Source: Brachybacterium squillarum M-6-3
GTDB lineage: Bacteria > Actinomycetota > Actinomycetes > Actinomycetales > Dermabacteraceae
NCBI RefSeq assembly: GCF_000225825.1
Contig: NZ_AGBX01000008.1
Coordinates: 1-64,000 of the forward strand
DNA: 64,000 nt
Direction: 5' to 3'
Shown here one piece after another: positions 12,624-45,832 of the stretch (position 1 is the first letter of the stretch; each line of letters starts with the position of its first letter). The translations under genes and the position numbers were made by a program. Below the pieces are notes generated by a model that saw nothing but the letters and a program-made list of their open reading frames with translations, was not told where the DNA came from and did no database searches.

Positions 12624-14194
<1,571 letters not shown>

Positions 14195-29973: not shown

Positions 29974-30000
29974 GACTCCCCCGGCCCCGGCCGCGCATCC

Positions 30001-30044: not shown

Positions 30045-30060
30045 GCGTGGGCGGGGCCGG

Positions 30061-30339
30061 TCAGTCGCGCAGGGAGGTCGCGTCCTGGTCGTCGGCGTGG
30101 GTGCTGATGTCCTCGGACACCGTGGAGAGCGCAGCGGTGAGCTTCGAGACGGTCTGGGAGACGAAGTCCGTCCAGGCCTGCTGGTAGTGGTCGGCATCGG
30201 GGCCGACCCAGTCCATCGCCCGCACCTCGGTGCCGGCGTCCTCGATGAGCTCGGCGATGCGGGTGCCGCAGTCGGCGACGGCGGTGGCGACCTCGCGGGC
30301 CTGCTCCACATCCATCCCCATGTAGGTGGTGCTGTTCAT
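30061..30339 (-). CDS. WXG100-family protein 1 (ESX-like secretion substrate)
   Basis: The 92-residue, mostly helical protein has the WXG100 layout: an N-terminal helix (DVEQAREVATAVADCG), a central turn with the W-x-G motif in MDWVGPDADHYQQAW, then a second helix. Such proteins are secreted as helical-hairpin dimers by type VII systems. It lacks the usual C-terminal YxxxD/E signal, although YMGMD occurs near the N terminus. Its tail HADDQDATS is shared with the other two WXG100 proteins here. A GAGGGAG Shine-Dalgarno precedes the ATG. It is the last gene of the minus-strand secretion locus. Confidence 0.85.
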   Translation of the reverse strand: MNSTTYMGMDVEQAREVATAVADCGTRIAELIEDAGTEVRAMDWVGPDADHYQQAWTDFVSQTVSKLTAALSTVSEDISTHADDQDATSLRD

Positions 30340-30423
30340 GATCTCCCTCTTCCGGGATCGGGCCGCACGGGGCGGCGGGTGGTGCCGTGCCCTGGGCTCG
30401 GCGGGTCCCTGCGGCGGCGTGCC

Positions 30424-30690
30424 TCAGGTGGTGGAGGTGACGCGCTGGTGCTGGGCGTTGGACTCGGCCTGCTCGGCGAGGCCGCGGAGGGCGTCGCGGA
30501 CGGTGCGGGCGATCGCCAGCACCTCGTCCTCGTAGCGGGCGACGCAGGTGTCGCGGTCCTCGCCGCTCCAGTCCAGGTCGACGATCTTCGCCTGGGTGTC
30601 CTCCACGAGGGTGAGCACGTCGTGCCCGGTCTCCTCGAGGCGGGTGGCGGTCTTCTCGGTGATCTCGGGGGTCATGCCCTTGATCGGCAT
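30424..30690 (-). CDS. WXG100-family protein 2
   Basis: The 88-residue protein has a helix-turn-helix-like pattern with W-x-G in LDWSGEDRDTCVARYEDE. The ATG at 30690 with AGGAGA upstream is chosen over an upstream in-frame start that would add a non-conserved basic region. It contains a Cys near the turn, unusual for the family. The C-terminal NAQHQRVTSTT resembles the tails of its two neighbours. A TAGCGT -10-like element lies 72 bp upstream. It is probably a partner or substrate of the ATPase encoded at 31307-35806. Confidence 0.8.
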   Translation of the reverse strand: MPIKGMTPEITEKTATRLEETGHDVLTLVEDTQAKIVDLDWSGEDRDTCVARYEDEVLAIARTVRDALRGLAEQAESNAQHQRVTSTT

Positions 30691-30761
30691 CGTGGGTCTC
30701 CTCTCGTCACGGCCGGCGCGGTGCTCGGCCCGGTGGACCACGGGGTCCGTGGGTGCTCCCC

Positions 30762-30767
30762 ACGCTA
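30762..30767 (-). promoter_or_regulatory. Candidate -10 element (CCTAGCGT) upstream of WXG100 gene 2
   Basis: The minus strand reads TTCCTAGCGTGGG across 30770-30758, with TAGCGT at 30767-30762, 72 bp before the ATG. Nearly the same motif precedes WXG100 gene 3 and the first gene of the locus. No -35 is conserved. Confidence 0.4.
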
Positions 30768-30887
30768 GGAAGCGGGGATCCGGTCGGGAACAGGGGCTGG
30801 TCCTCCACCGCGAGCCGGTGTCCATCGGCGCCGGTCAGGGACGGGCGGGGTGCCTGCGGGGTGTGGACACAGCGGGCGGCGGGCTCG

Positions 30888-31154
30888 TCAGCGCGCGGAG
30901 GTGGCGGACTGGTCGTCGGCGTTGCGGGTCGCCGCCTCGCCGAGCTCGGTGAGGCGGCGGGAGGTCGCCGTGATGGCCGGCACCAGGGTCCCCGTCCAGT
31001 GCTCGCGGAGCTGATCGGCATCCGGGCCGGTCCATTCCACGGCGGCGAGGCGGTCGCTGAGGTCCTGCTCGAGGGTCACCAGCTCCTCCCCCGCCTCCCG
31101 CAGCCCGGTCGCCATCCGGCGGACCTCCTGCACGTCCATGCCGTCGATGCTCAT
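30888..31154 (-). CDS. WXG100-family protein 3
   Basis: The 88-residue protein has two helices around VEWTGPDADQLREHW, the W-x-G turn. The N-terminal GMDVQEVRRMATGL resembles GMDVEQAREVATAV in WXG100 protein 1, and the tail NADDQSATSAR is nearly identical to that paralogue's tail. No YxxxD/E motif is present. GGAGGAG lies 6 nt before the ATG. It follows the EssC-like ATPase gene by 152 bp, which holds a candidate promoter. Confidence 0.85.
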   Translation of the reverse strand: MSIDGMDVQEVRRMATGLREAGEELVTLEQDLSDRLAAVEWTGPDADQLREHWTGTLVPAITATSRRLTELGEAATRNADDQSATSAR

Positions 31155-31214
31155 GGGGGCTCTCCTCCCGTCAGGTCCCGCCGGGGCGGGGGACGCGCGG
31201 CGCGCCCGGGGCCG

Positions 31215-31220
31215 ACGCTA
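31215..31220 (-). promoter_or_regulatory. Candidate -10 element (CCTAGCGT) upstream of WXG100 gene 3
   Basis: The minus strand reads GGCCTAGCGTCGG, with TAGCGT at 31220-31215, 61 bp before the ATG at 31154. It matches the motif before WXG100 gene 2 and suggests that the WXG100 genes have their own transcripts in addition to read-through from the operon. Confidence 0.4.
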
Positions 31221-31306
31221 GGCCGGGACGTGCCCGGGGAGGTGGGGAGGAGCCGCGGTGGGGACGGGGACGGAGGAGCGGCGGCGGATCGTCGCCGTCC
31301 CGAGGC

Positions 31307-34300
31307 TCAGGGGGTGTGGGCGACCTGCAGCAGCCGCGAGCGCCCGCCGCCGATGAGGACCCCGCGCCCGGGCGGCAGGTCCGTCCGGCGCAGCCGCCCC
31401 GTGGGGGTGCCCAGCAGGCTGTCACCCTCGTTCTCCGCCGGGTGCAGCAGCAGGCCGCGTCGGCCGGACTTGAAGGGGCGGGCCAGCTGATAGGCCTGCG
31501 ACCAGGTGCTCGACTCGCTCTCCGCGATCACGAACAGCCCCTCGCGGACGCAGGCGCGGATCAGGGGCTCCAGTTCCCGCTCGGCCCGGGTGCCGGCGAA
31601 CTCGGCGAGGCCGTCGAGCACGAGGGCGAGGCGGTCATCCCCCACGGCGCCGGCGTCGATGCTCGCGCGCAGCTGCGCGGCCAGCTCGGCCACCTCCTCC
31701 GGCTCGGAGGACTCCAGGTCCCACAGCTCGCGGCCGCTCAGCGTGGTGCGGCGGCCGGAGAAGCGCACCAGGCGTCGCGGGCCGGGGAGGGCCCGCAGGT
31801 GCGTGGCGAGGGTGAGCACGGCGGTGCTGCGGCCCGCCCCGGGCGGTCCCGAGATCAGGAACGCTCCGCGCGGGATTGTCGTCAGCTCGTCCAGGTCCTC
31901 GTCGGCGAGACCGAGCACGGGGCAGCCGTCGCGGGCTCGGGCGAGCGCCGAGGCCGGCACGTGCTCCGGCAGGCGACGGACCGGAGGCGCCTCGGCCACG
32001 CCGGCGCGGCGCATCGCCCCGGCGAGCGCCGAGACCGCCTGCGCCTGCACCGCGAGGTCCCCGTCGCCGCCGTGGACGGCCACCTGCACCTCGGATCCCG
32101 CGAGCAGTCCGCGGCCCGGCGGTGAGGCGGGCCCCAGCACGTCCCGCGGCTCCCCGAGGACGGCGTACTCGTCCGCCCCGGCCATGCGCAGCACCAGGCG
32201 GTGCTGGATCGTCGAGGCCATCGCCGTGGGCACCGCGCCGGCGCGGTCCGCGCTGAGCACCAGGTGCACCCCGACCTGGCGCCCGTCGGTGGCGATCTGC
32301 CCCAGCACGGTCATCCAGGGGGCCAGCGCCGGGGTGTCCAGGGACTCCCGGAGGGCGCCGAAGCCGTCCACCAGCAGCAGGATGCGGGGGGTGTCGGGCG
32401 CCCCGGCCAGCTCCCGGTAGCGGTCCAGGGACCCGGCGCGCAGCCGGGCGAAGTCCCGCGCGCGCTCCTCGACGACGCCGCGGAGGGTGCGCAGCAGCCG
32501 CACGGTCCGCTCCTCGTCGTCGTCGTCGATGATCGCGCCGACGTGCGGCAGCTCCTCGAGCAGGCGCAGCCCGCCTGCGCCGTGGTCCAGGCCGTAGACG
32601 TGGACCGGGCCGCCGCGGACCGTGGAGGCGGCGGAGATCGCGAGGGTGCGCAGGGCGGTGGACTTGCCGGAGCCGCCGGTGCCGAGGATCGCCAGGGTGC
32701 CGTCGCGGTCGGGGCGGTAGGCGACGGTGGGCTGCTCCTGCTCCCGCGGGAGGTCCTGCACGCCGAGCAGCAGCTCCTCGTCGCGGCGGGTGCTGGGCAG
32801 GCGGGCCAGGTCGTAGCGGGCGGCGAGCTCGGGCAGCCAGGGGCGGCGCGGCGGGGGCAGCTCGGCGTGGCGTGCCGCGGTGGTGAGGGTGGCGACGATG
32901 CGGGTGATGTCGGGCGGTCCGCCGGGGCGGGCCGTGGGGGCCGGCTGCTCCCAGGCCCGGCCGCGGGAGAAGGGCCGTTCGACGATGTCGAGGTCGGGCC
33001 GCTGTCCGTCCGCGCCCGTGTGTCCGCCGGCGTAGGCGGCCTGGAAGGGCACCAGCCGCCCGGGACCGCTGGCGGCGACGGCGCGGCCTGGCAGGTCCGG
33101 GTCGATGTGGGCGGCCATGCGGTCGCCGAGGATGTCGGTGGAGTCCTCGGCGTCGGCCGTGCGCAACGCGATCCGCAGGTTCGTGTTGGCGCGCAGACTG
33201 TCCTTGATCACGCCGGCGGGTCGCTGGGTGGCGAGGATCAGGTGCAGGCCCAGCGAACGCCCGCGGGCCGCGATGTCGACCATCCCGTCCACGAACTCGG
33301 GGATCTCCGTGGCGAGGGCCGCGAACTCGTCGACCACGACCACCAGGGAGGGCGGGCAGTCGGGGTCGCCGCGCCGCTCCAGGGTGAGCAGGTCCTTGGC
33401 GCCCTTGCGCTGCAGCAGGTGCTCGCGCTGGCGCAGCTCGGCCCGCAGCGAGGTCAGGGCGCGCCGCACGAGGTGCGGGGACAGGTCGGTGACCAGCCCC
33501 ACCGCGTGGGGCAGCCGCACGCAGTCGGCGAAGGCGGCCCCGCCCTTGTAGTCCACGAACAGGAAGCACACCCGCGACGGGGAGTGGGCCGCGGCCATGC
33601 CGAGCACCCAGGACTGCAGGAACTCGGACTTCCCCGAGCCGGTGGTGCCGCCGACGAGGGCGTGGGGGCCCTGGCGGCGCAGGTCGAGACGGAAGGGGTG
33701 CTGGCCGTCGTGGCCGACCAGCGCCCCCAGGCCGTCCCGGGCGGGATCCGCGGGCACGGTGTCCCCGGGCGAGATGTCACCGGGCGCGGCGTCCGTGCCG
33801 GTCCCCGTCCAGGCGCGGGCGACGGCGCCGGGGTCCGCGGCGGGCGCGGGCCCGGTCAGGGCGAGCAGACCGATGCTGCGGGGCAGGTCGGAGTCGTCGC
33901 CGAGGGGCACCCCGGCGTCGACCATGGGGGCGAGCCGGCGGGCGGTGGTGGCGGCCGCGGCCGCGTCGAGGGTCTCGACGCTGACGGGGGCGAATCGCTC
34001 ACCGCGGCGGACGTGCCCGGCGACGGTCGTGCCCTCCCCCGTGGCGGCGGCGCCGGGGGTCTCGGGGACCGGGCGGGGCGCGGACAGGTCGAGCGTGGTG
34101 CGGCAGGCGGCCGGCAGGTCGGCGGGGGTGGGGGCGTGCCAGATCAGGTGCACGCCCACGTCGGGGCCGCGCTCGGCCAGGCGCACCAGGCGGGCGCGGT
34201 CCACGGGGGCGTCGTCCTCGACGAGCACCACCACGGTGGGCAGGACCGGTGCGGGCGGCTCCTCCCCCTCCCCCGGCCGGGTCTCCGGGATCGGCGGACG

Positions 34301-35806
34301 GGGACGCGCCGGCCCGCCGCCGCGTTCGGCGAGGAGGTCCTCCAGACGGCCGAGCAGGGCGCCTCCCGCCGCCGCCGAGTCGGCCAGGTGCTCCCCGGGC
34401 AGCGGCGAGTGCGGGCTCGCGGTGTGCGGCAGCCAGGGCAGCCAGCCCCATCGACCCAGGCCGCGCGGGGGCACCAGCGCGGCCAGGACCAGCTCGGCCG
34501 GGGAGTGCAGGGCGCACAGCTGCAGCACGAGCCCGCGGGCCGCGCCGTCCGCGTCCTCCCCGCTGCCGGCGAGCCCGAGGTTCCCGGCCTCCCGCAGGTC
34601 CGCGACGACCGGCACCCCGGCGACGTCGCGGTAGTCCTCCTGCACCTGGTCGAGCAGGTCCTGGTACTCGGGGAGGGTGCCCATCTCGCTCGGCGCCTCG
34701 ATGCCCACCCGGGAGGGGGCGATGCCGAGCCCGAGGCGGAGGGTGGCGAAGGCGGGATGCTCGGGACGATGGGTCCACAGCAGGGGTCCCATCCGCAGCG
34801 CGGCGTCGACGGCCTGCGCCGTGGAGGGCGCCTCGACGTCGCGCACCGCCCGTTCGATCTCCTGCGCGGCGGCGAGGCGTCGGGTGAGGGCGGCCAGGGC
34901 CCGCTCGAAGGTCTCGATCTGCTGCTCGAGGGTACGTCGCTGCTGGTAGCGGCGGTTGAGGTAGCCGGCGACGGCCATCATCGGCATCATCACGACGAAG
35001 ACCAGGGCGAAGGGGCTGCGGGTGAGGCCGAAGAGGAAGGCGCCCATCAGCAGCGGGGCGAACAGCATGAAGATCGGGAACACGGTGGGGGCCGGCTCCC
35101 GCGGCGGCGTCGGGGCGCGCAGGCTGCGCGGCGGGAACCGGGGCACCACACGCGGGGAGCGGTTGATCTCCAGGACGGGCGCGGTCGGATCCAGGCCACC
35201 GACGCGCTGCAGGGGGATCACCGCGAGGGTGCTGCCGCCGATCCGGACGGTGTCGGCGGGGCCGAGGACGACGCGCGGCACCCGCCGTTCGCCGTGGTGC
35301 AGGCCGTGGGTGGAGTCGAGGTCGATGATCTCGACGACCTCCCCGAGGTTCAGCCGGGCATGGCGGCGCGAGAGCTGCGGGTCGGCGAGGCGCACGTCGA
35401 GCTCCCCCTCGCGGCCGATCACGTGGGAGCCGCTGCCGAGCGGGATCTCACGGCCGGCCTCGGGACCGGAGAGCACCCGCAGCAGGGCGACGGCGCCGTC
35501 CCGCTCGGCGTCGTCGAGGGGGTCGCCGGGGGCGGGCGCGGGCACGAGGCGGACGGTGCTGCCGGAGCGCAGCCCGGCCTGGATCAGGTCCTGGTCCCGC
35601 GCCAGCGTGCGGGTGCCCCGTCCGCCGGCCTCGGGGGCGTCGCCGACCTGCAGCGTGGCCTGCTCGGGTGGCGGGTCCTGCGGGTGCAGCGGGTCGGCGC
35701 GCAGCAGCGCCTCGGCGAGGTCGGCGACGGTGGCGGTCGCGTCGGCGGTCACCTCCAGGTCCGTGGGGCCGGCTCCGGCCCGCTGCACCGTGAGGGTGAT
35801 CCGCAT
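31307..35806 (-). CDS. Type VII secretion FtsK/SpoIIIE-type ATPase with N-terminal FHA domain (EssC/EccC-like)
   Basis: The 1499-residue protein is the predicted motor. Residues 1-90 look like a beta-grasp/ubiquitin-like domain. Residues about 106-197 are an FHA domain with Gly131-Arg132, Ser146-Arg-Arg-His149 and DLDSTHG, where the usual Asn is His167. Two membrane helices follow (about 241-261 and 266-283). Three FtsK/SpoIIIE ATPase modules come next. The first has Walker A GGTTGSGKSE (Lys726), VDEFAAL and ILATQRP, and looks active. The second has GTGGSGKST (Lys1048). The third has SGPPGAGRST, with Arg1326 replacing Lys. FHA at the N terminus resembles firmicute EssC; three ATPase modules are common to EssC and EccC. 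It is encoded beside three WXG100 genes, the likely cargo. Confidence 0.9.
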   Translation of the reverse strand: MRITLTVQRAGAGPTDLEVTADATATVADLAEALLRADPLHPQDPPPEQATLQVGDAPEAGGRGTRTLARDQDLIQAGLRSGSTVRLVPAPAPGDPLDDAERDGAVALLRVLSGPEAGREIPLGSGSHVIGREGELDVRLADPQLSRRHARLNLGEVVEIIDLDSTHGLHHGERRVPRVVLGPADTVRIGGSTLAVIPLQRVGGLDPTAPVLEINRSPRVVPRFPPRSLRAPTPPREPAPTVFPIFMLFAPLLMGAFLFGLTRSPFALVFVVMMPMMAVAGYLNRRYQQRRTLEQQIETFERALAALTRRLAAAQEIERAVRDVEAPSTAQAVDAALRMGPLLWTHRPEHPAFATLRLGLGIAPSRVGIEAPSEMGTLPEYQDLLDQVQEDYRDVAGVPVVADLREAGNLGLAGSGEDADGAARGLVLQLCALHSPAELVLAALVPPRGLGRWGWLPWLPHTASPHSPLPGEHLADSAAAGGALLGRLEDLLAERGGGPARPRPPIPETRPGEGEEPPAPVLPTVVVLVEDDAPVDRARLVRLAERGPDVGVHLIWHAPTPADLPAACRTTLDLSAPRPVPETPGAAATGEGTTVAGHVRRGERFAPVSVETLDAAAAATTARRLAPMVDAGVPLGDDSDLPRSIGLLALTGPAPAADPGAVARAWTGTGTDAAPGDISPGDTVPADPARDGLGALVGHDGQHPFRLDLRRQGPHALVGGTTGSGKSEFLQSWVLGMAAAHSPSRVCFLFVDYKGGAAFADCVRLPHAVGLVTDLSPHLVRRALTSLRAELRQREHLLQRKGAKDLLTLERRGDPDCPPSLVVVVDEFAALATEIPEFVDGMVDIAARGRSLGLHLILATQRPAGVIKDSLRANTNLRIALRTADAEDSTDILGDRMAAHIDPDLPGRAVAASGPGRLVPFQAAYAGGHTGADGQRPDLDIVERPFSRGRAWEQPAPTARPGGPPDITRIVATLTTAARHAELPPPRRPWLPELAARYDLARLPSTRRDEELLLGVQDLPREQEQPTVAYRPDRDGTLAILGTGGSGKSTALRTLAISAASTVRGGPVHVYGLDHGAGGLRLLEELPHVGAIIDDDDEERTVRLLRTLRGVVEERARDFARLRAGSLDRYRELAGAPDTPRILLLVDGFGALRESLDTPALAPWMTVLGQIATDGRQVGVHLVLSADRAGAVPTAMASTIQHRLVLRMAGADEYAVLGEPRDVLGPASPPGRGLLAGSEVQVAVHGGDGDLAVQAQAVSALAGAMRRAGVAEAPPVRRLPEHVPASALARARDGCPVLGLADEDLDELTTIPRGAFLISGPPGAGRSTAVLTLATHLRALPGPRRLVRFSGRRTTLSGRELWDLESSEPEEVAELAAQLRASIDAGAVGDDRLALVLDGLAEFAGTRAERELEPLIRACVREGLFVIAESESSTWSQAYQLARPFKSGRRGLLLHPAENEGDSLLGTPTGRLRRTDLPPGRGVLIGGGRSRLLQVAHTP

Positions 35807-35815
35807 CAGGTGTCC

Positions 35816-36526
35816 TCAGTCGTCCTCGGCGTCCTCGCGCCGGTCCAGCAGCGGGAGGTCCTCGCTGGTGACCAGTCGGGAGAAGACGGCGTGCTCGACG
35901 AGGCGGGCGCGCCGGTTGCTGGCGAGCTTGCCGGGCCCGCCGCGGAGGCCGCGCACGCCTTGCCGGTCGAGCTTGTCGCAGACGTTGTCGAGCTTGCGGT
36001 TGAACTTGGTCAGGGCCCAGCCGAGGCGCTGCGCGGCCTGGGCGGAGGTCGGGACGGCGCTCATGCCACTGCCCTCGCGCAGCAGCAGCGGCTCGGCGAG
36101 GGAGAGGATCAGCTGCTTCTGGCTGAGGGTGAGCGGCACGGCGCCGACGGTGGTCTCGCCCAGGGGGTCGTCGGGTCCGGCGGTGCGCTCGAAGGAGGGC
36201 GACTCGGTGTGGACGGCGAGGTCGTAGGTGGTGGGTCCGGCGGTGAACACCACCTTGGTGACGTCGAAGACCAGCGGCAGCCGCGCGCCGGGGGCGAGCC
36301 AGGCCTGCATCGCCCCTACGCCGTCGGTGATGGTGGCGGAGAGGCGGGTGCCGATGTTGACCAGCCACCACATGCCCTCCACCTGGGTGATGGTGAGGAA
36401 GCGGCGGTGCAGGAAGGGGTTGTCCTCGTCGACGCTGAGATCGGCGTCGCGGCCGATCACGAAGTCCTGGCCCTCCTCGATGCGGTACCACTCCCCACAG
36501 AACTCGACCGAGATCGTCGCGGTCAT
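35816..36526 (-). CDS. FHA-like N-terminal domain with C-terminal winged-helix-like domain
   Basis: The 236-residue protein starts with a divergent FHA-like beta domain (EEGQDFVIGRDADLSVDEDN, HRRFLTI, WWLVNIG). A C-terminal helical region follows, around LTLSQKQLILSLAEPLLL and SAQAAQRLGWALTKFNRKLDNVCDKL, that reads like a winged helix. The ATG at 36526 is preceded by a GGAGGAGAC Shine-Dalgarno; the frame upstream is artefact. It lies 9 bp before the ATPase gene. A cytoplasmic phospho-dependent adaptor or regulator of the secretion locus is a reasonable guess, but no function is shown. There is no membrane segment. Confidence 0.75.
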   Translation of the reverse strand: MTATISVEFCGEWYRIEEGQDFVIGRDADLSVDEDNPFLHRRFLTITQVEGMWWLVNIGTRLSATITDGVGAMQAWLAPGARLPLVFDVTKVVFTAGPTTYDLAVHTESPSFERTAGPDDPLGETTVGAVPLTLSQKQLILSLAEPLLLREGSGMSAVPTSAQAAQRLGWALTKFNRKLDNVCDKLDRQGVRGLRGGPGKLASNRRARLVEHAVFSRLVTSEDLPLLDRREDAEDD

Positions 36527-36602
36527 CCGTGTCTCCTCCCTCTCGTCCCCCGATGTCGGCGCTCCCGGCTCGTTCCGGGGGCCCGGCGGCCATCCTGGCA
36601 CG

Positions 36603-37103
36603 TCATGGCGCCTCCCCCGGGAGGCAGGCGACCTCGGCAGCGCTCGCGGCGCCGTCCTCGCGCACGGTGCGCGCCTCGACGCAGACCCCGTCCAGTCCGG
36701 GCGGCACGGTGAGGACGGCGCTGCGGCGGCCGTGCACGGGATGGGTCCCGGCATGGGCGGCGTAGTTCTCGGGCAGCTCGTGCCAGCGCAGCTCCACGTG
36801 CTCCTCGCCCCCGGGGCCGGGGTGGGACCAGGTGACCCGGGCGCGGGCGGCGGCGTCGATCTCCCCGGCGGGCAGCAGCAGGGCGAGGCCGAGGTCGGCC
36901 GGCGGCGCGGGGGCGTCCGGGGCTCGGGACGGCGCCGGGGCGGGGGTCCCCGTCACGTCAGCGGGCCCGGTGGGGCCGTCCACGCCCGGCCAGTGGGGTG
37001 CGGTGAGCCCGGCGGCCGCGCCGGGGACGAGCACGAGCAGGGATGCGAGCAGCATCGCCCGCGTGCCGGGACGTCGCGGCGGGGTATGGCCGGCGGGGAT
37101 CAC
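36603..37103 (-). CDS. Small membrane-anchored or secreted protein with fibronectin type III-like domain
   Basis: The 166-residue protein starts at GTG 37103, overlapping the stop of the FHA gene upstream (GTGA). A hydrophobic segment (AMLLASLLVLVPGAAAGL, about residues 16-34) acts as signal anchor or signal peptide. A Pro/Ala-rich linker follows, then about 90 residues with a fibronectin III-like strand pattern: ARVTWSHPGPGGEEHVELRW, SAVLTVPPGLDGVCVEARTV, ending in two cysteines that could form a disulfide. In bifidobacterial PFNA clusters an Fn3 protein is a core member; this may be its reduced C-terminal equivalent. The domain call is by eye. Confidence 0.65.
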   Translation of the reverse strand: MIPAGHTPPRRPGTRAMLLASLLVLVPGAAAGLTAPHWPGVDGPTGPADVTGTPAPAPSRAPDAPAPPADLGLALLLPAGEIDAAARARVTWSHPGPGGEEHVELRWHELPENYAAHAGTHPVHGRRSAVLTVPPGLDGVCVEARTVREDGAASAAEVACLPGEAP

Positions 37104-38953: not shown

Positions 38954-38955
38954 GC

Positions 38956-39822
38956 TCAGTCCCGGGACCGCTCGGCGACGGGGCGGGGCTGGGTGTCCTC
39001 CTCGGAGGTGCCGTCCTCGGCGGGTGCCTCGCTCGCGGCGCCGGGGACCAGGCCGCCATGGCCGACGACCTCGGTGGCCTCGAGGACGACCACGGTGACG
39101 TTGTCGCGGCCGCCGCCGTCGAGGGCGAGGCGGACGAGGTCCTGGCCGATGCTCTCCACCGCGGCGGAGCTGCGCAGCACCCGCTCGATCATCCGGTCTT
39201 CGACCTCCCCGGTGAGGCCGTCCGAGCAGACCAGCATCCGGTCGCCGACCTCGGCGGGGATCAGCCAGAAGTCCGGCTCCGAGTCGGGGCCGGCGCCGAG
39301 GGCCCGGGTGACCATGTGCCGGTAGGGGTGGACACGGGCCTCCTCGGGCGTGAGGTCCCCGCGGTTCATCAGCTCCTGCACCACCGAGTGGTCCATGCTG
39401 ACCTGCTCGAAGAGGTTGCCGGAGAGGCGGTAGACGCGGGAGTCGCCGAGGTTCATCACCACCCAGTAGCCGATGCCGTCCTCGACGGCGGTGGCGACCG
39501 CGGCGACGGTGGTGCCGGCACCCTGCTGGGTCTCGCCGCCGAGGGCTCCGATGCGCTCCCCCGCCCCGCGCAGGGCGTCGGACATCTGCGCCACGGTGAC
39601 GGTGCTCTGCAGGGTGAGCTTCTCGAACTCCTCCACGGCGATGGCGCTGGCCACCTCGCCCGCGTTGTGCCCGCCCATGCCGTCGGCGACGAGGAAGACG
39701 GGGGCGTCGGCGAGGTAGCTGTCCTCGTTGGTGGCGCGGACGTGGCCCACGTGGGTGCGGGCGGTGGACACCACCCGGATGGTGCCCGGCCCATCGGGGG
39801 CGGCAAGCGAGGGGTCGATCAC
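38956..39822 (-). CDS. PP2C-family serine/threonine phosphatase
   Basis: The 288-residue soluble PP2C/PPM phosphatase removes phosphate from Ser/Thr. Its motifs are complete: RATNEDSYLA and VADGMGGHNAGE (metal-binding Asp residues), GTTVAAVATA, MNLGDSRVYRL, DHSVVQELMNRGDLT, CSDGLTG and RDNVTVVVL. The GTG at 39822 overlaps the stop of the RDD gene (GTGA). The acidic C-terminal tail has no membrane helix, unlike PstP. Being inside an operon with FHA proteins, it probably reverses threonine phosphorylation that controls the secretion locus. No Ser/Thr kinase gene is present in the window. Confidence 0.92.
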   Translation of the reverse strand: MIDPSLAAPDGPGTIRVVSTARTHVGHVRATNEDSYLADAPVFLVADGMGGHNAGEVASAIAVEEFEKLTLQSTVTVAQMSDALRGAGERIGALGGETQQGAGTTVAAVATAVEDGIGYWVVMNLGDSRVYRLSGNLFEQVSMDHSVVQELMNRGDLTPEEARVHPYRHMVTRALGAGPDSEPDFWLIPAEVGDRMLVCSDGLTGEVEDRMIERVLRSSAAVESIGQDLVRLALDGGGRDNVTVVVLEATEVVGHGGLVPGAASEAPAEDGTSEEDTQPRPVAERSRD

Positions 39823-40724
39823 GGCGCGGTCTCCACGGGTCGGGGACGAGGGGTGAGGACGGGACGTCCCCCGGTGGGGGATCCCGGGACGAGCACCGGG
39901 GCGGCGGCTGGTCCGAGGCGGAGGGCGGCAGGGACCCGGGAGGCGGGGACGGGACGCGGGTGCCAGGGGTCCTCCCCGCGGCGGACGTCCAGCAGCAGCG
40001 CGCCGGTGAGACGGTCGTGCACGCCGCTCCCCCGACGGAGGCCGAGGAGCGCGACGGGCAGCAGCACCGGGAACAGGGCCGCCCGGGCCAGGGACCGCGC
40101 CGTTCCCGCAGGCCTCTCGTCGACGGCGCGCACGAGCCGCAGCCCGAGCGCGGCGGCCCCCGGGGCGCGGCCCCGCACGCCCTGGCACCACAGCAGGGTC
40201 AGCGCGAGCGCGCACAGCAGCGAGGTGCCGGCCCCGATCAGCAGCTGGGCGGGCCACGTCCCCTCCCCTGTCTCCTCTCCACGCAGCATCCACAGCAGGC
40301 CCGCCGTGAGGGGTGCGGCGGCCAGGAGCAGCAGCAGCGCGTCGAGGCCGCTGGCGAGGGCGCGGCGCACGGCCGGGGCGGGGCGGCGCTCCCCGGGACG
40401 GGTTGCGGATGCACGTCGCCCCGGAGAGGGGGTGCGCTCGGGGGACGGCGCCGCCGCGGGCGGGCCGGCCGGCCGCGTTCCCGGGGGCGTGAGCATCCCC
40501 CGATCGTACTGGCCCGGGCCGGTGGGCGCGCTCGGCGACGGTGGACGGGGGACGGCGGCCCAGGCACGGGGCAGGGACACGGGGTGCCCGGCGGTGCCGC
40601 CGGGGTCGCCGCAGCGGGTGCCGCACTCCCCGCAGACGGCGGCGGCCGGTCCCAGCAGGGCGAGGCAGCGGCGGCAGCGGGGGCCGACGTCGCCGGTCCG
40701 CGGGGACTCTCCGGGGCCCGTCAT
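39819..40724 (-). CDS. RDD-family membrane protein with N-terminal zinc ribbon
   Basis: The 301-residue protein begins with a zinc-ribbon pattern (Cys17-x2-Cys20 and Cys31-x2-Cys34), then a Pro/Arg-rich linker to about residue 115. An RDD domain follows: ALASGLDALLLLLAAAPL with the Asp in the first helix, two to three membrane helices, RAPGAAALGLRLV and the cytoplasmic segment GVHDRLTGALLL. RDD proteins are membrane proteins of unclear role, sometimes ion exchangers. The ATG at 40724 overlaps the transglutaminase-like gene's stop (ATGA). Its fixed place in the operon suggests a membrane component or regulator of the secretion machine. Confidence 0.8.
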   Translation of the reverse strand: MTGPGESPRTGDVGPRCRRCLALLGPAAAVCGECGTRCGDPGGTAGHPVSLPRAWAAVPRPPSPSAPTGPGQYDRGMLTPPGTRPAGPPAAAPSPERTPSPGRRASATRPGERRPAPAVRRALASGLDALLLLLAAAPLTAGLLWMLRGEETGEGTWPAQLLIGAGTSLLCALALTLLWCQGVRGRAPGAAALGLRLVRAVDERPAGTARSLARAALFPVLLPVALLGLRRGSGVHDRLTGALLLDVRRGEDPWHPRPVPASRVPAALRLGPAAAPVLVPGSPTGGRPVLTPRPRPVETAP

Positions 40725-42634
40725 CGCCCCTCCCCCGTGCCGCGTCCGGGGACCGCAGCCCCGGGGATGTCCAGGGGGATCCAGCCGTGGCCCGCGAGCC
40801 GCAGCTCCACCCAGGCGGTCATGTCGGCGCCGTGCAGCATCAGGCGGTCCGGGGGCGAGGGCGGGGCGAGGGCGCCCATCACCACCCGGGCGGGGATGCC
40901 GGCGGCGCGCGCCAGCAGGACCAGCAGGACGGTGAGCTGCTCCTCGTCACCGTCCAGGCCGCGCGGCGCCTCCTCGGCACGCCCGGGGTCCAGCATGCTT
41001 CCCGCGGTCATCGCGAGCAGCCGGGCCAGGCCGTGGCCCGGAAGGCCCGGGGGGTCGCCGTCGGGGCGGGGCGTCCGGGCCTCCGCGAGCTCCGCGGCGA
41101 GCCCGTTCAGGGCGTCGAGGGCGCCGCGACGCCCGGGGCCGAGGACGGGGACGGCGTGGCGCCAGGCCGCCGGGAGCGGCAGCGGGGGCGGCAGGAGGTC
41201 GGGGGCGGCGGCCGCGGCGCGCCAGCGCGCGGGGTCCGCGGGCTCCGTGCGGCACGCCACCCGGTAGCGCTCCCCTCCGCGCAACCCTGCCGGCAGGGCC
41301 AGGGTGCCGCTGCGCCGGTTGACGACGGGCTGCTCGGCGGTCTCCGCACGGCCCGAGCGATCCCTCCGCTCGAGCAGCCCGAGCCGCCCGGCAGGCAGCG
41401 GCAGCCAGGGGCCCCGCAGCTCGTGGACGGTGATTTCCAGCCGGCGGTCGGACGGGGCTGGCCGCGAGAGCGAGGCGCCCCAGGGGTGCCGCAGGAAGGC
41501 ACCGGAGTCCGCGCCGTCGCGCCGCGGGTGCTCCCCACCGCCGGCGGTGAGGAGGGCCTGGCCGTCGTGGCGGTCCATCACGGCCAGACGCAGCCGGTCG
41601 CCGTCGAGCAGGCCCTCGACGGTCAGCAGGGGACGATCGGCGCGTCGGGTGCGGTGACCGCGCAAGGTGCTGAGCGGGGACGGCTCCTGCCGGGGGTCCC
41701 AGGCGGGCACGAGCCCGTCGCGCGGTGCCGGGCGCGGCTCCGGCGCGGGCCGGAGCCGCGTGAGGGCCGCGGTACCGCCCCCGGCCACGCCGAGCACGGC
41801 CGCGGTCTCCAGGGCCGCGCGTCGGGTCACTCCCCCGGGCAGGCTGGGCGGAGGCGGGGGCGCGGGCGACGAGAAGAGACGGGCACGTGCCGCGGCGGTC
41901 CGCGGCGTGGAGCTCGCGGACGGGACAGGGGCGGGGGCGGCCGGGGGGTCGATGTCCCGGTCGGCGCGGGGGGTGAGGACGAGGGCCATCAGGCAGAGGA
42001 TCCCCAGGCCGATCCCGCGCCCTGCCGCGGCGACCTCCTGGGCCGGAGCCAGCAGGATCGCGACGGCCGGCACGAGCATCGACGCGGCCAGGGCGGCGAG
42101 CGCACGGCGCCGCAGGGCGAGCACCCCGCCGACGGCGGTGGCGGTCAGCACCGGCACCCACACCACGATCAGCACCCCGGCGGCGGCCCTCGACGGACCG
42201 TCGGCGCCGAGCAGCCGCATCCACGCCGTGACCGGAGCGGTGAGCAGCGTCAGGAGCGAGCTGCGGGTGGGGACGAGCCCCCAGCGGGCCTCCGCGGGGG
42301 CGATGGCGACGGTGCCGAGCAGCAGGGTGGCCGCGAGACCCAGGCCGGCCGCCCGCAGCACACCCCAGCGGCGCCGGTGGACGAGCACCGCGATCAGCAG
42401 GCCGGCGGCGCACGCGATCGCCCCGGTGACCAGGTACCGCTCGTCGCGGAACAGCGGGGCGAACCCCGGCAGGGTGAGGGCGCTGGCTCCGAGGATCGGC
42501 AGGAGACGCCGGGCGGCGTCGCGGACCACGGTGCCGCGAGAGGCCACGGTGTCACGAGAAGCCACGGTGTCACGAGGGGCCGCGGTGTCACGAGGGGCCG
42601 CGGCGTCGCGTGGGGGCCGGCGGGACGAGCTCAT
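40721..42634 (-). CDS. Transglutaminase-fold membrane protein with missing catalytic residues (TgpA-like)
   Basis: The 637-residue protein has an N-terminal tail with six-residue repeats (PRDTAA/SRDTVA type). At least five predicted membrane helices lie between residues about 45 and 225. After a linker comes a large soluble region ending in a transglutaminase-like fold. In active members this reads GDCE...laRaxGIPARVVxG...HxWVE...GWxxxD. Here the sites are Glu564 (in GDEEQ, for Cys), Thr606 (in MTAWVEL, for His) and Asp622 (in WIPLDIPG, retained). It is thus probably a pseudoenzyme with a binding or structural role. The ATG at 42634 overlaps the DUF58-like gene's stop (ATGA). The DUF58-transglutaminase-MoxR trio is a classic association. 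Confidence 0.82.
   Translation of the reverse strand: MSSSRRPPRDAAAPRDTAAPRDTVASRDTVASRGTVVRDAARRLLPILGASALTLPGFAPLFRDERYLVTGAIACAAGLLIAVLVHRRRWGVLRAAGLGLAATLLLGTVAIAPAEARWGLVPTRSSLLTLLTAPVTAWMRLLGADGPSRAAAGVLIVVWVPVLTATAVGGVLALRRRALAALAASMLVPAVAILLAPAQEVAAAGRGIGLGILCLMALVLTPRADRDIDPPAAPAPVPSASSTPRTAAARARLFSSPAPPPPPSLPGGVTRRAALETAAVLGVAGGGTAALTRLRPAPEPRPAPRDGLVPAWDPRQEPSPLSTLRGHRTRRADRPLLTVEGLLDGDRLRLAVMDRHDGQALLTAGGGEHPRRDGADSGAFLRHPWGASLSRPAPSDRRLEITVHELRGPWLPLPAGRLGLLERRDRSGRAETAEQPVVNRRSGTLALPAGLRGGERYRVACRTEPADPARWRAAAAAPDLLPPPLPLPAAWRHAVPVLGPGRRGALDALNGLAAELAEARTPRPDGDPPGLPGHGLARLLAMTAGSMLDPGRAEEAPRGLDGDEEQLTVLLVLLARAAGIPARVVMGALAPPSPPDRLMLHGADMTAWVELRLAGHGWIPLDIPGAAVPGRGTGEGR
42525..42614. 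repeat. Five tandem copies of an 18-bp unit inside a coding region
   Basis: Five adjacent 18-bp units (42525-42542, 42543-42560, 42561-42578, 42579-42596, 42597-42614) differ by one to a few bases each. They encode the repeated hexapeptide in the cytoplasmic N terminus of the transglutaminase-fold protein. The unit length is a multiple of three, so copy-number change would keep the frame. Confidence 0.85.
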
Positions 42635-43686
42635 GCGGTCACCCCCGCGTCCGGCGTCGTCGCGGTCGGGGTCCGGGCCAGGTCCCGGGAGGCGGCTCCG
42701 ACCGGGTCGAGGGCGCGCGGGAGGTCCTCGAGCCGGGCGAGGTCCACCACGGGGAGGCCGGCCACGGCGGTCCGACGGGTGGATCCGGTGCCCGCGCAGC
42801 GGATGACGAGGCGGGCGTCGGCGGACGGCCCGGACCAGGCGGCGAGCACGCGCGGCCCCGCCCCGGAGCCGGTGACCAGGATCCGGGCAGAGGTCCCGTG
42901 GCGCGCCGGCGGGGCCGCGGGGATGTCCGCGGGGGACCAGGTCCAGCGGGCCAGCTCGTCCTGCAGCTCGGCGAGGGAGCGCACCGCACGCGCCCGACCC
43001 TCCAGGTGCACGCGGAGCGGCGCCCCGGACACGGCCGTGCGCAGGGCGAGGGAGTGCAGCACCGCGAGGGCGAGCTCCTGCGCGTGCTCGGAGCCGATCA
43101 GCGGGGGATGCAGACGGGCGTGGACCTCCGCGACGGGCACCCCCGTCAGCCGCACGCTGCGCGGGGCCACGGTGACCGTCGCCGCGCTCCCGTGGTGCAC
43201 GGTGCGCCGCCAGAGACCGAGCGAGTCCTCCCGGATCTCTCGCAGGGGCCCGAGCATCCGCACGGCACGGCGACCGGGGGTGATCGGGATCCGCTGCCGG
43301 TGCTCGGCTCCGGGGGGCATCGCCGGCAGCGTGACCGCGACAGGGCCGGCCTCCTCCCCTGTCTCCGGGAGCTGCAGGGTCACCGCGGGCAGCATCCGGC
43401 GCCCGGGGTGGCGGGCGGAGAGGGTCAGCACGGTCCCGGTGCCGGTCGGGGTGCGCGGTGTCGAGGCGGTCAGGCCGAGGTGCCGCCTCCGGACGGGCAG
43501 CGCGGCCACGCCGGCGGCCAGGAGGCCGAGCACCAGGGTGAGCGCCACGGCCCGCAGCTCCGCGAGAGGGCTGAGGATGCTCAGTGCGGCAGTGCCCGCG
43601 GCCAGCAGCAGGACCCCCGTCCCGCGGGAGGTCAGGCCCAGGGAGCGCGCCGCCCGGTTCGACGCCCGGGGACCGGCCCCGCTCAT
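42631..43686 (-). CDS. DUF58-like membrane-associated protein
   Basis: The 351-residue protein has two N-terminal hydrophobic helices (GTGVLLLAAGTAALSIL and AVALTLVLGLLAAGVAAL). A beta-rich domain follows with the DUF58-type segment REDSLGLWRRTVHHGSAATVTVAPR. The usual later DUF58 stretch (E-Y-x-x-G-D then R-x-I-H-W) is not seen, so it is divergent or shortened. It overlaps moxR upstream and the transglutaminase-like gene downstream by 4 bp each. Assignment rests partly on this context, since MoxR-DUF58-transglutaminase is a widespread trio. The ATG at 43686 fits the overlap. Confidence 0.75.
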   Translation of the reverse strand: MSGAGPRASNRAARSLGLTSRGTGVLLLAAGTAALSILSPLAELRAVALTLVLGLLAAGVAALPVRRRHLGLTASTPRTPTGTGTVLTLSARHPGRRMLPAVTLQLPETGEEAGPVAVTLPAMPPGAEHRQRIPITPGRRAVRMLGPLREIREDSLGLWRRTVHHGSAATVTVAPRSVRLTGVPVAEVHARLHPPLIGSEHAQELALAVLHSLALRTAVSGAPLRVHLEGRARAVRSLAELQDELARWTWSPADIPAAPPARHGTSARILVTGSGAGPRVLAAWSGPSADARLVIRCAGTGSTRRTAVAGLPVVDLARLEDLPRALDPVGAASRDLARTPTATTPDAGVTA

Positions 43687-44579
43687 GCGCCGCGCCCGCG
43701 GACTCGGGGGGCGGAGACCGACCCGAGGACGGACCGGAGGACGTCGTCGACGGTGCTGCCGGCGTACTCCGCCTCGGCGTCCAGACAAAGGCGATGGGCC
43801 CACACGGGATGCAGAAGCGCCTGGATGTCCGCGGGGACGGCGCGGGGGCGTCCCGCGAGGGCCGCTCGGGTGCGCACCGCGCGGACGAGGTCGAGACCGG
43901 CACGCGGGGAGACGCCGCCGCGGAGCTCGGCGCGACGGTGGGTCTCCTCCATCAGGTGGGCGAGGTAGCCGTGCAGAGGTGCGCTCAGCTCGACCGTGGA
44001 GGCGAGTGCTCGCATGTCGTGCAGGGCCTCCCGGGTCAGGAGCGGCGGGCGCGCGGGCGCGGCGGACGTCGCCGGATGCCGGGAGAGCAGCCGCACGGTG
44101 GCGGCATGATCGGGGAGACCCATCGGCGTCCGCAGCAGGATGCGGTCGCGCACGGCCTGTGACGGGCCGCTCTCACCCGTATCCGGGTCCTCGTGGGAGG
44201 AGATGACCGTCAGCAGCGGCGCAGGGCGGACGTCGGCCTCCTCTCGGCCGAGCACCGCCGGCTGGACGGCACGCCACTCCCCCGGGCAGAGATCGAGCAG
44301 CAGGAGCTCAACCCGGGGGTCCGGTCCGGGGACGGTGACCGGCGCGAGTCCCTGGACGCAGCCGCCCAGGGCGTGGGCGAGGGTGGACTTCCCGGTGCCG
44401 GGGGCGCCCGCGAGCCAGAGCGGACCACCGGCCATGAGGGCGAGGACGCCGAAGCGGACCGCGTACGGGGCGCCGGGGAGCTGGTCGTCGAGATCCCGGG
44501 CGATGAGGTCTCCCGTGTCGGCGAACCATCCGGCCTGGGCATCGGTCATGCCCGGGACGGCGGGGGCCGGGGCGCTCAT
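43683..44579 (-). CDS. MoxR-type AAA+ ATPase
   Basis: The 298-residue cytoplasmic AAA+ protein has Walker A GAPGTGKST (Lys64). The Walker B region reads VELLLLDLCPGEWRAV, where the usual D-E pair is Asp-Leu. The arginine-rich sensor region SQAVRDRILLRTPMGLPD follows, then a C-terminal lid domain ending with ALAGRPRAVPADIQALLHPVWAHRL, typical of MoxR. Family members act as chaperones for metal insertion or complex assembly. It overlaps the DUF58-like gene (ATGA) and the propeller gene upstream (ATGA). A role in assembling the neighbouring membrane complex is inferred. Confidence 0.83.
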   Translation of the reverse strand: MSAPAPAVPGMTDAQAGWFADTGDLIARDLDDQLPGAPYAVRFGVLALMAGGPLWLAGAPGTGKSTLAHALGGCVQGLAPVTVPGPDPRVELLLLDLCPGEWRAVQPAVLGREEADVRPAPLLTVISSHEDPDTGESGPSQAVRDRILLRTPMGLPDHAATVRLLSRHPATSAAPARPPLLTREALHDMRALASTVELSAPLHGYLAHLMEETHRRAELRGGVSPRAGLDLVRAVRTRAALAGRPRAVPADIQALLHPVWAHRLCLDAEAEYAGSTVDDVLRSVLGSVSAPRVRGRGA

Positions 44580-45754
44580 CGCTGCTCCTGGAGGATCGTG
44601 AGTTCAGGGCCGAGTTCCAGGGATGCCGGGTCCTCGTCGAGCACGTGGCACCAGCCGGAGCGGCGGTCCTCGAGCAGCAGCAGATCACCCTGGGCGTGCA
44701 GCGCGAGGGACGCGTCGGCGGGGAGGGAGGGCAGGTCGAACAGCTGCGGCGCGTGCTCGGGGCCGCACCGGAGCACGCGGGCCGGGTCCTGCCAGACGCC
44801 GCACGCTCCGTGGCGGGTGCGCACCGGCGGAAGCGGGACGGCGGAGGCCCCGGCCGGTCGTCGCCGCGGAGCGGATCCGTCTCGAGGCAGCGCGATCAGG
44901 GCGTCCCCCGTGGCGACCAGGATGTCGGCGGCGTCGGGACCGGGACGCTGCAGCCGGGCCGAGGCGAGGTCGGTGACGCCGTGTCGCGAGGGGTCCAGGA
45001 CGCGGCCGGGTGTGCGCAGGAGGCGATGCTCCCGGTCCAGCACGATCGGATGCTCCCCCACGGTGCTGAGCTCGAGGGCCGCGGGGTCGGCTGTGAGTCC
45101 GGGGAGGTCGATGGCGGACCGCGGAATGATCTCGGAGGCGACGTCTCGGCGGGGCAGGCTGTGCAGGGTGGTCCCGTCGAGGAGGTGGGCTCCGCCGTGG
45201 AGGTCGACGACGATCGGGCACGGCCCGGTGGCGGCACGATGGGCGGGGGCCACGGAGGTCAGTCCCCCGGGCGGCAGCGCCGTGGCGTCGAGGACTCGCA
45301 CGGCGCCGTCGGGGGTCGCGACGGCGAGGCGGTCCGCCCCGAGCGCGATGCGGCTCCCCTCGGGCAGGGTGAACGGGAGGCCCTGGCGGAGGGTGCACGG
45401 GTCGACGGGGGTGAGACCAGCGGGCCCTAGCTGGAGCAGCGCGTGCGCGGTGGAGAGGACGGCGGTGGTGCCCGCGGCCGCGGGGACCAGGGCGTCGACC
45501 CGGCGGGCGTCGAGGTGGACACGGGCGAGGAGTCCGCGCGTGGCGTCGAGGGTCCAGAGTCCTCCGCTCGAGGGCGCGGGGACGACGGTCGGCGAGGTGG
45601 GCTGTCGCGCTGCGAGCGCGCCGAGGGCTGTCAGACCGAGCGCGAGGAAGCCGGGCCCGAGCAGTCGGCTTCGGGTGAGGCTCGGGGGCGGTGCCAAGGG
45701 GTCGGTCGGTCCGGATGCTCTCCGTGGTTCCCGGGGTGTCGGTGTGCGTGCCAT
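44576..45754 (-). CDS. Membrane-anchored beta-propeller-like protein (PFNA Fn3 N-terminal-half-like)
   Basis: The 392-residue protein has a basic N terminus, one hydrophobic segment (about residues 31-48, LLGPGFLALGLTALGALAA) and an extracellular region of repeated short beta segments: GGLWTLDATRGLLARVHLDAR, SRIALGADRLAVATPDGAVRVLDAT, GDLLLLEDRRSGWCHVLD. The pattern suggests a beta-propeller. It resembles, as I recall, the N-terminal halves of the large Fn3 proteins that precede moxR in other actinobacteria, but the Fn3 repeats themselves are absent. The ATG at 45754 follows GAGGGG by 5 nt. It is the first gene of the secretion-locus operon. Confidence 0.7.
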   Translation of the reverse strand: MARTPTPREPRRASGPTDPLAPPPSLTRSRLLGPGFLALGLTALGALAARQPTSPTVVPAPSSGGLWTLDATRGLLARVHLDARRVDALVPAAAGTTAVLSTAHALLQLGPAGLTPVDPCTLRQGLPFTLPEGSRIALGADRLAVATPDGAVRVLDATALPPGGLTSVAPAHRAATGPCPIVVDLHGGAHLLDGTTLHSLPRRDVASEIIPRSAIDLPGLTADPAALELSTVGEHPIVLDREHRLLRTPGRVLDPSRHGVTDLASARLQRPGPDAADILVATGDALIALPRDGSAPRRRPAGASAVPLPPVRTRHGACGVWQDPARVLRCGPEHAPQLFDLPSLPADASLALHAQGDLLLLEDRRSGWCHVLDEDPASLELGPELTILQEQR

Positions 45755-45832
45755 GTGGTCCCCTCGATCCTCCGCCTGCGGGCCGCCGGCCACGGCGGCA
45801 GGCCGGCAGCTGCGCCGACCGTGATGCTGGCC

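What the first reader, a model, noticed from the sequence alone, without database searches (positions are those of the whole stretch)
30061..45754. Thirteen-gene type VII secretion-like locus merged with a PFNA-like signalling cluster
Seen: three WXG100 genes, an FHA-FtsK/SpoIIIE ATPase, FHA proteins, PP2C, zinc-ribbon RDD, transglutaminase-fold, DUF58-like, MoxR and propeller genes, all minus strand, most with 4-bp overlaps. Known: WXG100 plus EssC/EccC defines type VII secretion; bifidobacterial PFNA clusters join kinase, Fn3, AAA, DUF58 and transglutaminase. Inference: one machine where a phospho-signal and a MoxR/DUF58/transglutaminase complex control WXG100 export. EccB, EccD, EccE and mycosin genes are absent from the window, so it differs from mycobacterial ESX.
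Basis: partly seen in the sequence, partly recalled or inferred. Interest (0 to 1): 0.8.

Follow-up and report, generated by a model that had tools for sequence, protein, structure and literature searches.

The report
Stripped-down type VII secretion operon
A Brachybacterium carries a 13-gene protein-export locus of a kind shared with its relatives, but in this species most of the attached control proteins have lost their active parts while the export motor, its small cargo-like proteins and a phosphatase are kept.

Summary
The 13 genes are real (30061-45793, minus strand): an FHA-EssC/EccC-type ATPase, three WXG100-like genes, two FHA proteins, PP2C, RDD, pseudo-transglutaminase, DUF58-like, MoxR-like and propeller genes, in a Brachybacterium. 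The joining of ATPase and PFNA-like genes is not peculiar to this window: in 60 of 81 related loci the ATPase follows the marker gene FHA2, and 35 of 37 genus mates have FHA2. What is peculiar is erosion. Only here, among the loci covered, has the kinase lost its whole catalytic domain (its membrane and FN3-like part is the 166-aa gene), MoxR its Walker B and the DUF58 protein its motif. RDD has lost its FHA domain; Ig/FN3 repeats and a DcrB-like gene are also missing, as in a few relatives. MoxR is 36% identical to relatives that are 91% identical to each other. PP2C and FHA2 are normal; the ATPase keeps its first motor. So the proposed kinase-MoxR-DUF58 control cannot operate from this locus as stated, though it may in relatives. 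Best reading: an export core kept while its control module is dismantled; main rival: the whole locus in slow decay. No export was tested.

The parts
44576..45793 (-). Propeller-type membrane protein, 405 aa; corresponds to the N-terminal TM + propeller part of a giant Ig/FN3 protein in relatives; repeats absent
43683..44579 (-). MoxR-like protein, 298 aa; Walker A kept, a 25-aa block missing and Walker B not recognisable; AAA lid kept
42631..43686 (-). DUF58-family remnant, 351 aa; N-terminal membrane part and middle domain alignable, DUF58 motif missing
40721..42634 (-). TgpA-like transglutaminase-fold membrane protein, 637 aa; catalytic Cys and His motifs absent (as in the genus); C-terminal TM and about 200-aa tail lost here
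39819..40724 (-). Zinc-ribbon RDD membrane protein, 301 aa; C-terminal FHA domain of relatives absent
38956..39822 (-). PP2C-type phosphatase, 288 aa; four motifs intact, conserved at the genus rate
37100..38953 (-). FHA1: protein with C-terminal FHA domain, 617 aa; phosphothreonine-site motifs (GRR, SRSH, NGT) kept
36603..37103 (-). Decapitated kinase: TM helix and FN3-like outer domain of the Ser/Thr kinase, catalytic domain absent, 166 aa
35816..36526 (-). FHA2: conserved protein without Pfam hit (FHA-like N-terminus, helix-turn-helix-like C-terminus by eye), 236 aa; marker of the locus
31307..35806 (-). FHA-FtsK/SpoIIIE ATPase of EssC/EccC class, 1499 aa; first ATPase domain intact
30888..31154 (-). 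WXG100-like protein 1, 88 aa
30424..30690 (-). WXG100-like protein 2, 88 aa
30061..30339 (-). WXG100-like protein 3, 92 aa; last gene of the locus
29991..30054 (.). Inverted repeat (31-nt arms, 90% complementary) between the last WXG100 gene and the convergent YajQ-like gene (name recalled) at 29485-29970; candidate terminator

Best explanation
It is an actinobacterial type VII-like export locus whose attached PFNA-like control module has been dismantled in this species while the export core is kept. Shown: gene order, missing domains, normal PP2C and FHA2, intact first ATPase domain. Inferred: the ATPase works at the membrane and exports the WXG100 proteins; the FHA domains of the ATPase and FHA1 can still read phosphothreonine; with no kinase domain in the locus any phosphorylation comes from one of the five Ser/Thr kinases elsewhere in the genome (two of them adjacent, probably PknA/PknB, names recalled), opposed by the PP2C; MoxR, DUF58, pseudo-transglutaminase, RDD, propeller and the kinase stub persist at most as non-enzymatic membrane scaffold and are under much weakened selection. 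Export would then be uncoupled from the locus's own outer-surface sensing.
For: Kinase catalytic domain found in 81 of 81 loci and in 35 of 35 genus-mate loci (8 loci are in both sets, so 108 distinct), absent here; the stub aligns to the kinase TM + outer domain and is modelled as an FN3-like fold (best PDB match E 9.2e-4). Walker B in 29/29 and DUF58 motif in 29/29 other Brachybacterium copies covered, absent here. Genus-invariant residues kept: PP2C 106/110, FHA2 118/120, against MoxR 81/202, DUF58 42/134, TG 63/134, RDD 39/80 with 30 deleted; FHA1 70/98. ATPase 62-63% identical to 10 Brachybacterium ATPases, Walker A/B of D1 intact. FHA1 phospho-site motifs kept. Retention not even: MoxR lid 28/44 vs core 43/113, p=0.004, split chosen afterwards. 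Same chromosomal place (polyprenyl synthetase upstream in the 3 loci found to hold it; MaoC/MurB downstream); no closer MoxR among 149 genomes of the order. Five kinase domains elsewhere in the genome.
Against: No export, expression or phosphorylation data. Codon-position divergence of MoxR (.47/.39/.49), DUF58 (.55/.50/.52), TG (.51/.47/.53) and RDD (.52/.45/.53) is nearly flat, as expected close to neutral drift, and the ATPase itself is faster than in relatives (terminal branch 0.67 vs 0.20 over its first 560 aa). One near-complete genus mate has neither FHA2 nor a close PP2C (G007), so the locus can be lost. WXG100 matches are sub-threshold, and WXG100 neighbours were detected in only 14 of 73 non-Brachybacterium loci, so export of WXG100 by this ATPase is an inference.
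Confidence: 0.5

Rival explanations
1. The whole locus is a relic in slow decay: kinase, MoxR and DUF58 went first, the ATPase and WXG100 genes are following, and nothing is exported. Open frames persist largely because stop codons are rare at 73% G+C.
For: Flat codon-position divergence in four genes; ATPase branch accelerated; DcrB-like gene absent; one genus mate has neither FHA2 nor a close PP2C; the kinase is damaged or altered in two further species: IS21-type insertion in L107, HRDIT instead of HRDIK in L121. Of 35 alternative frames of the seven genes tested, 11 have no stop either, so open frames are cheap here.
Against: ATPase still shows constraint (.28/.21/.42 by codon position; D1 motifs intact); PP2C and FHA2 at normal rate; all three WxG motifs kept; 0 internal stops where 12 are expected from position-wise composition over 2775 codons of seven genes.
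Confidence: 0.3
2. Neofunctionalisation: MoxR, DUF58, TG, RDD and the kinase stub have been remodelled by positive selection into a non-enzymatic assembly with a new job.
For: Frames kept open with several internal in-frame length changes; loss by domain rather than at random, with lid, RDD membrane part and outer domain retained.
Against: Flat codon-position divergence also fits plain relaxation; AlphaFold gives the MoxR core (1-189) pLDDT below 50, only the lid is more confident (shallow alignment).
Confidence: 0.12
3. One reading: kinase/phosphatase signalling and an active MoxR/DUF58/transglutaminase complex control WXG100 export here.
For: Conserved gene linkage in relatives; PP2C and FHA proteins present.
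Against: No kinase domain, Walker B or DUF58 motif in this genome's copy; transglutaminase catalytic motifs absent in 29 of 29 other Brachybacterium copies.
Confidence: 0.04
4. The odd genes were brought in from another lineage (gene replacement) where this short form is normal.
For: MoxR only 36% identical to the rest of the genus.
Against: Normal PP2C and FHA2 lie between and beside the odd genes, same order and same flanks; the best MoxR matches outside the genus are 39-41% over about residues 118-295 and the genus orthologues (36-39%) rank among them (149 genomes drawn from the order).
Confidence: 0.04

Closest known systems
T7SSd (Garrett et al. 2024, PMC11217815; Olsenella, Bifidobacterium)
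   Same: By description: FHA-bearing EssC-class ATPase, WXG100 protein, membrane kinase and a giant Ig-like envelope protein, all of which kinds occur in the related loci
   Different: T7SSd is given five core parts; the main text has no occurrence of MoxR, transglutaminase, fibronectin, DUF58, RDD, Micrococc-, Arthrobacter or Brachybacterium (figures and supplements not seen). This window also lacks the kinase domain and Ig/FN3 repeats. No T7SSd sequence was compared.
PFNA cluster of bifidobacteria (PMC8430577)
   Same: Same gene kinds: kinase, FN3, AAA, DUF58, TG, PP2C, FHA; the layout of 8 loci (kinase-FHA2-propeller/FN3-MoxR-DUF58-TG) follows its order
   Different: Described as unique to bifidobacteria, 0 occurrences of FtsK, WXG or secretion in the main text. 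In the window's layout the kinase gene stands near the end, and it is beheaded.
T7SSb EssC / T7SSa EccC systems
   Same: ATPase matches both
   Different: Below the curated cut-offs of EssC, EccCa and EccCb; no EssA/EssB/EsaA or EccB/D/E among the Pfam hits of the locus genes

Membership tests
Type VII secretion (any subtype) | EccC/EssC-type FtsK/SpoIIIE ATPase | tested here: met
   PDB matches 4nh0 (E 6.5e-67; labelled FtsK/SpoIIIE, recalled as EccC), YukB 1.6e-59, EccC5 1.4e-47; TIGR03928 EssC 473 bits, under its 778 cut-off
Type VII secretion (any subtype) | WXG100 protein beside the ATPase | tested here: met
   Three genes with central WxG, sub-threshold to Pfam/NCBIfam, homologous to those at the same place in relatives
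Type VII secretion (any subtype) | ATPase-dependent export of WXG100 proteins | not testable with these tools
   Needs culture supernatants
T7SSa (ESX) | EccB, EccD, mycosin | tested here: inconclusive
   Not among Pfam hits of the genes scanned; EccB genome search empty but no control genome rang; EccD and mycosin not searched genome-wide
T7SSb | EssA, EssB, EsaA | not tested
   None among the Pfam hits of the locus genes; no genome-wide search made
T7SSd | Ser/Thr kinase TsdD | tested here: not met
   Catalytic domain absent in the window; present in 108 other loci
T7SSd | Giant Ig-like envelope protein TsdI | tested here: not met
   Window has the propeller part only; Ig/FN3 repeats in the two relatives scanned, L094 and L102; homology to TsdI itself not tested
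T7SSd | TsdH small TM protein | not tested
   No TsdH sequence at hand
PFNA cluster | Kinase pkb2 | tested here: not met
PFNA cluster | FN3 protein | tested here: not met
   No FN3 repeats in the propeller protein; an FN3-like fold survives only in the kinase stub
PFNA cluster | MoxR-type AAA ATPase | tested here: inconclusive
   Orthologous by place, lid and Walker A present, Walker B absent
PFNA cluster | DUF58 protein | tested here: not met
   No Pfam DUF58 hit, motif absent; orthologue by position and residual identity
PFNA cluster | Transglutaminase-fold membrane protein | tested here: met
   TgpA_N + Transglut_core; catalytic motifs absent

The most novel reading that the evidence does not exclude
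A natural 'unlocked' type VII system: kinase, giant Ig/FN3 protein, MoxR, DUF58 and the RDD-linked FHA were lost because they form one regulatory/gating module, and selection kept only the core that can export without it (ATPase, WXG100, PP2C, FHA1, FHA2). The co-loss would itself map which PFNA proteins work together, and the eroded but open reading frames would be kept for translational coupling (4-bp overlaps) to the conserved PP2C and downstream genes.
Probability: 0.3. Interest if true: 0.68.

Novelty: new variant of a known kind. Interest (0 to 1): 0.5.

Why it matters
Two literatures did not meet in the papers found here: the PFNA cluster, described as bifidobacterial and linked to host sensing, and the new type VII subtypes. 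The loci gathered here show that in many relatives the two gene sets are neighbours, which gives the PFNA proteins a testable partner (the export ATPase). The window's species is a natural knock-out: if its stripped locus still exports, the kinase, MoxR ATPase, DUF58 and Ig/FN3 protein are regulators rather than parts of the export channel.

Tried and rejected
Second intact copy in the genome: FHA2 has one match in the own genome, and none of the five kinase loci shows other cluster genes within the 3.6-3.8 kb fetched. Horizontal replacement: see rivals. Assembly artefact: the genes are open and in the expected order; not pursued further. Active transglutaminase: rejected for the genus copies covered. 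Sister species with the same erosion: L113 and L121 also lack the Ig/FN3 repeats and L098 lacks the whole propeller gene, but all three keep Walker B and the DUF58 motif and do not group with the window in the FHA2+PP2C tree. DcrB-like gene as a loss peculiar to the window: rejected on recount; it is in 9 of the 10 other Brachybacterium genomes whose stretch reaches that far, absent from G023 too. Promoter/terminator scan: nothing found. AlphaFold model of MoxR: low confidence, weak support only. EccB genome search: uninformative. TG search over the order: no answer. A regular expression for Walker A was wrong (0 of 29); Walker A was judged from the alignment. Comparison with real TsdC or Bifidobacterium sequences: not made.

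Rows dropped before counts: L104 (frameshifted sequence); RDD rows L119, L124, L128 and those under 290 aa; FHA1 rows under 600 aa; ATPase rows under 500 aa, all cut to 560 aa; propeller/FN3 compared for 7 sequences only. The kinase row of L107 was kept although its ORF includes insert-derived residues. One search used 10 Brachybacterium ATPases. MoxR, DUF58 and TG are covered in 29 of the 35 genus-mate stretches; the others stop at contig ends. The 80 loci are the best 80 of 159. One protein (L098) had wrong coordinates and is ignored.
Full report
What is there. Thirteen minus-strand genes run from 45793 down to 30061. Order of transcription: propeller, MoxR-like, DUF58-like, TgpA-like transglutaminase-fold, zinc-ribbon RDD, PP2C, FHA1, a 166-aa membrane protein, FHA2, FHA-FtsK ATPase, three WXG100-like genes. 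Six of 12 junctions overlap by 4 bp. The locus ends at an inverted repeat facing a convergent YajQ-like gene (name recalled). The ATPase is of EssC/EccC class: PDB matches 4nh0 (E 6.5e-67, labelled FtsK/SpoIIIE, recalled as EccC), YukB and EccC5; NCBIfam EssC 473 bits, below that family's cut-off of 778. The WXG100 genes are sub-threshold to the libraries used, and a Pfam WXG100 search of the own genome found none.

Relatives. A scan of named genomes with FHA2 gave 159 relatives, of which the best 80 were read; the nearest eight are Brachybacterium. A genus search found FHA2 once in each of 36 of 38 genomes, own included; these are unnamed, and the genus name rests on eight that match named contigs in length. 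Among the 80 loci plus L001 (Arthrobacter), 60 of 81 have the ATPase directly after FHA2 on the same strand; 7 have no ATPase match in the stretch held; 11 have a propeller or FN3 gene after FHA2, in 8 of them followed by MoxR, DUF58 and TG; 2 have the ATPase on the other strand; 1 ends at the contig end. So the joined locus is common. WXG100 genes were found beside the ATPase in 7 of 8 named Brachybacterium loci (the eighth, L008, is cut short) and in 14 of the 73 other loci (some of these are cut short or lack the ATPase). In four Arthrobacter/Paenarthrobacter loci read by eye the ATPase is followed by a DNA-ligase-like gene (name recalled) and no WXG100 gene. FHA2 was found in 12 of 296 genomes drawn across the phylum, own included.

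What is missing here. In all 81 loci and in all 35 genus-mate loci fetched a Ser/Thr kinase catalytic domain lies upstream of FHA2; eight loci are in both sets, so 108 distinct. The window has none. Its 166-aa gene aligns with the TM and outer domain of that kinase; 81 of 166 residues are modelled with pLDDT of 90 or more, and the best PDB matches are FN3 domains. MoxR is 298 aa against 324 in 27 of 29 genus mates and lacks a 25-aa block and Walker B; the DUF58 protein lacks a 40-aa block with the family motif; RDD lacks its C-terminal FHA; the transglutaminase-fold protein lacks its C-terminal TM and tail; the propeller protein lacks the Ig/FN3 repeats. Walker B is found in 29 of 29 and the DUF58 motif in 29 of 29 other Brachybacterium copies covered. 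The FHA part of RDD from L094 has a match in each of the 34 genus-mate loci with an RDD row (in a few the match may be the neighbouring FHA1) and none in the window. A DcrB-like gene (weak Pfam match, E 0.04) between the first and second WXG100 genes is present in 9 of 10 other Brachybacterium genomes that could be checked, absent from G023 and from the window, so that loss is not peculiar to the window; nor is the loss of Ig/FN3 repeats (below).

Rates. Median identity of window to the genus, with the genus among itself in brackets: MoxR 36% (91%), DUF58 29% (72%), TG 33% (61%), RDD 32% (55%), FHA1 37% (49%), PP2C 69% (77%), FHA2 80% (84%), first 560 aa of the ATPase 60% (83%); full ATPase 62-63% (81%, 10 species). 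The WXG100 genes are 30-49% identical to six relatives, which are 43-58% identical among themselves by gene median. Terminal branches: MoxR 1.83 against 0.24 for the next longest, ATPase 0.67 against 0.20. Codon-position distances are nearly flat for MoxR (.47/.39/.49), DUF58, TG and RDD, but normal for PP2C (.20/.19/.39) and FHA2 (.14/.09/.37) and intermediate for the ATPase (.28/.21/.42). Against plain decay: no internal stop in seven genes where 12 are expected from position-wise composition (P about 6e-6), and the retained residues are not even (MoxR lid 28/44, core 43/113, p 0.004 with a split chosen afterwards; RDD membrane part kept, FHA part deleted). Both are moderate: 11 of the 35 alternative frames of the same genes have no stop either, and indels in weakly similar stretches are uncertain.

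Where and how. The flanks are those of relatives (polyprenyl synthetase in L098, L113 and L121; MaoC and MurB downstream), and no closer MoxR was found among 149 genomes of the order (best 36-41%), so the change most likely happened in place. The module is fragile in the genus: L113 and L121 have a propeller without repeats, L098 no propeller gene, L121 a kinase with HRDIT in place of HRDIK (still a Pfam kinase at 110 bits), L107 a kinase interrupted by an IS21-type element, and G007 neither FHA2 nor a close PP2C. With G007 and the incomplete G030, this genome has the fewest kinase matches of the genus (5; range 5-10).

Mechanism. The ATPase keeps its first motor (Walker A, Walker B), the three WxG proteins are kept, and FHA1 and the ATPase FHA keep most phosphothreonine-site residues (the Asn of the ATPase FHA is His, as in G023). 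The simplest reading is a WXG100 export core from which the sensing and ATP-driven control parts have been removed; phosphorylation, if any, would come from kinases elsewhere and be reversed by the conserved PP2C. That export occurs at all is an inference. The main rival, slow decay of the entire locus, is not excluded.

Known systems. From PMC11217815 (abstract, sections 8 and 9, passages found by search): T7SSd has WXG100, FHA-ATPase, kinase, a giant Ig-like protein and a small TM protein, in Actinomycetota. The related loci share four of these kinds and add MoxR, DUF58, TG, RDD, PP2C, FHA1 and FHA2; homology to the T7SSd proteins was not tested. From PMC8430577 (abstract and passages): PFNA is pkb2-fn3-aaa-duf58-tgm with prpC, a hypothetical gene and fha in some species, said to be unique to bifidobacteria; FtsK, WXG and secretion do not occur in its main text. 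Literature searches with other term sets (open-licence papers only, listings seen) listed no paper whose title or abstract start describes the combined locus or a Brachybacterium type VII system. The window's own copy fails several membership tests of both families; its relatives would pass more of them.

Noticed in passing
L107 (unnamed genus mate G017), about 4690-7022: An IS21-type element (IstB-like and transposase ORFs) interrupts the kinase gene of this species' locus near codon 63: an independent kinase inactivation.
   Followed up: partly
L121 (unnamed genus mate G001) 12373-14046: Kinase with GSGR and HRDIT in place of GSGG and HRDIK, Ig/FN3 repeats lost, DUF58 protein on the second longest branch: perhaps an earlier stage of the same erosion.
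   Followed up: partly
G007 (unnamed genus mate, 99% complete): No FHA2 match and no close PP2C: the locus may be lost entirely.
   Followed up: partly
L133 (G023), between the first and second WXG100 genes: The DcrB-like gene is absent here as in the window.
   Followed up: partly
L129 6371-8248 and L004 about 16587-18350: The second and third WXG100 genes are present as a near-identical tandem duplicate pair in at least two Brachybacterium genomes.
   Followed up: no
L014, L016, L017, L045 (Arthrobacter, Paenarthrobacter): PFNA-like genes and FHA-ATPase without a WXG100 gene next to them; a DNA-ligase-like gene follows. What this ATPase moves there is open.
   Followed up: no
L024: Record titled Sporosarcina beigongshangi REN13 carries an Arthrobacter-like copy of the locus; possibly a contaminated or mislabelled contig.
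   Followed up: no
L129 5986-6465: 159-aa DcrB-like protein between WXG100 genes of relatives; DcrB/DUF1795 folds serve as effector chaperones (EagR) in type VI secretion (recalled), so a chaperone role is conceivable.
   Followed up: no
L030, L047, L056, L063, L064, L069, L073, L076: Layout with kinase-FHA2-propeller/FN3-MoxR-DUF58-TG, the order of the bifidobacterial PFNA cluster, without the ATPase after FHA2 (L063 has an ATPase match far upstream).
   Followed up: partly
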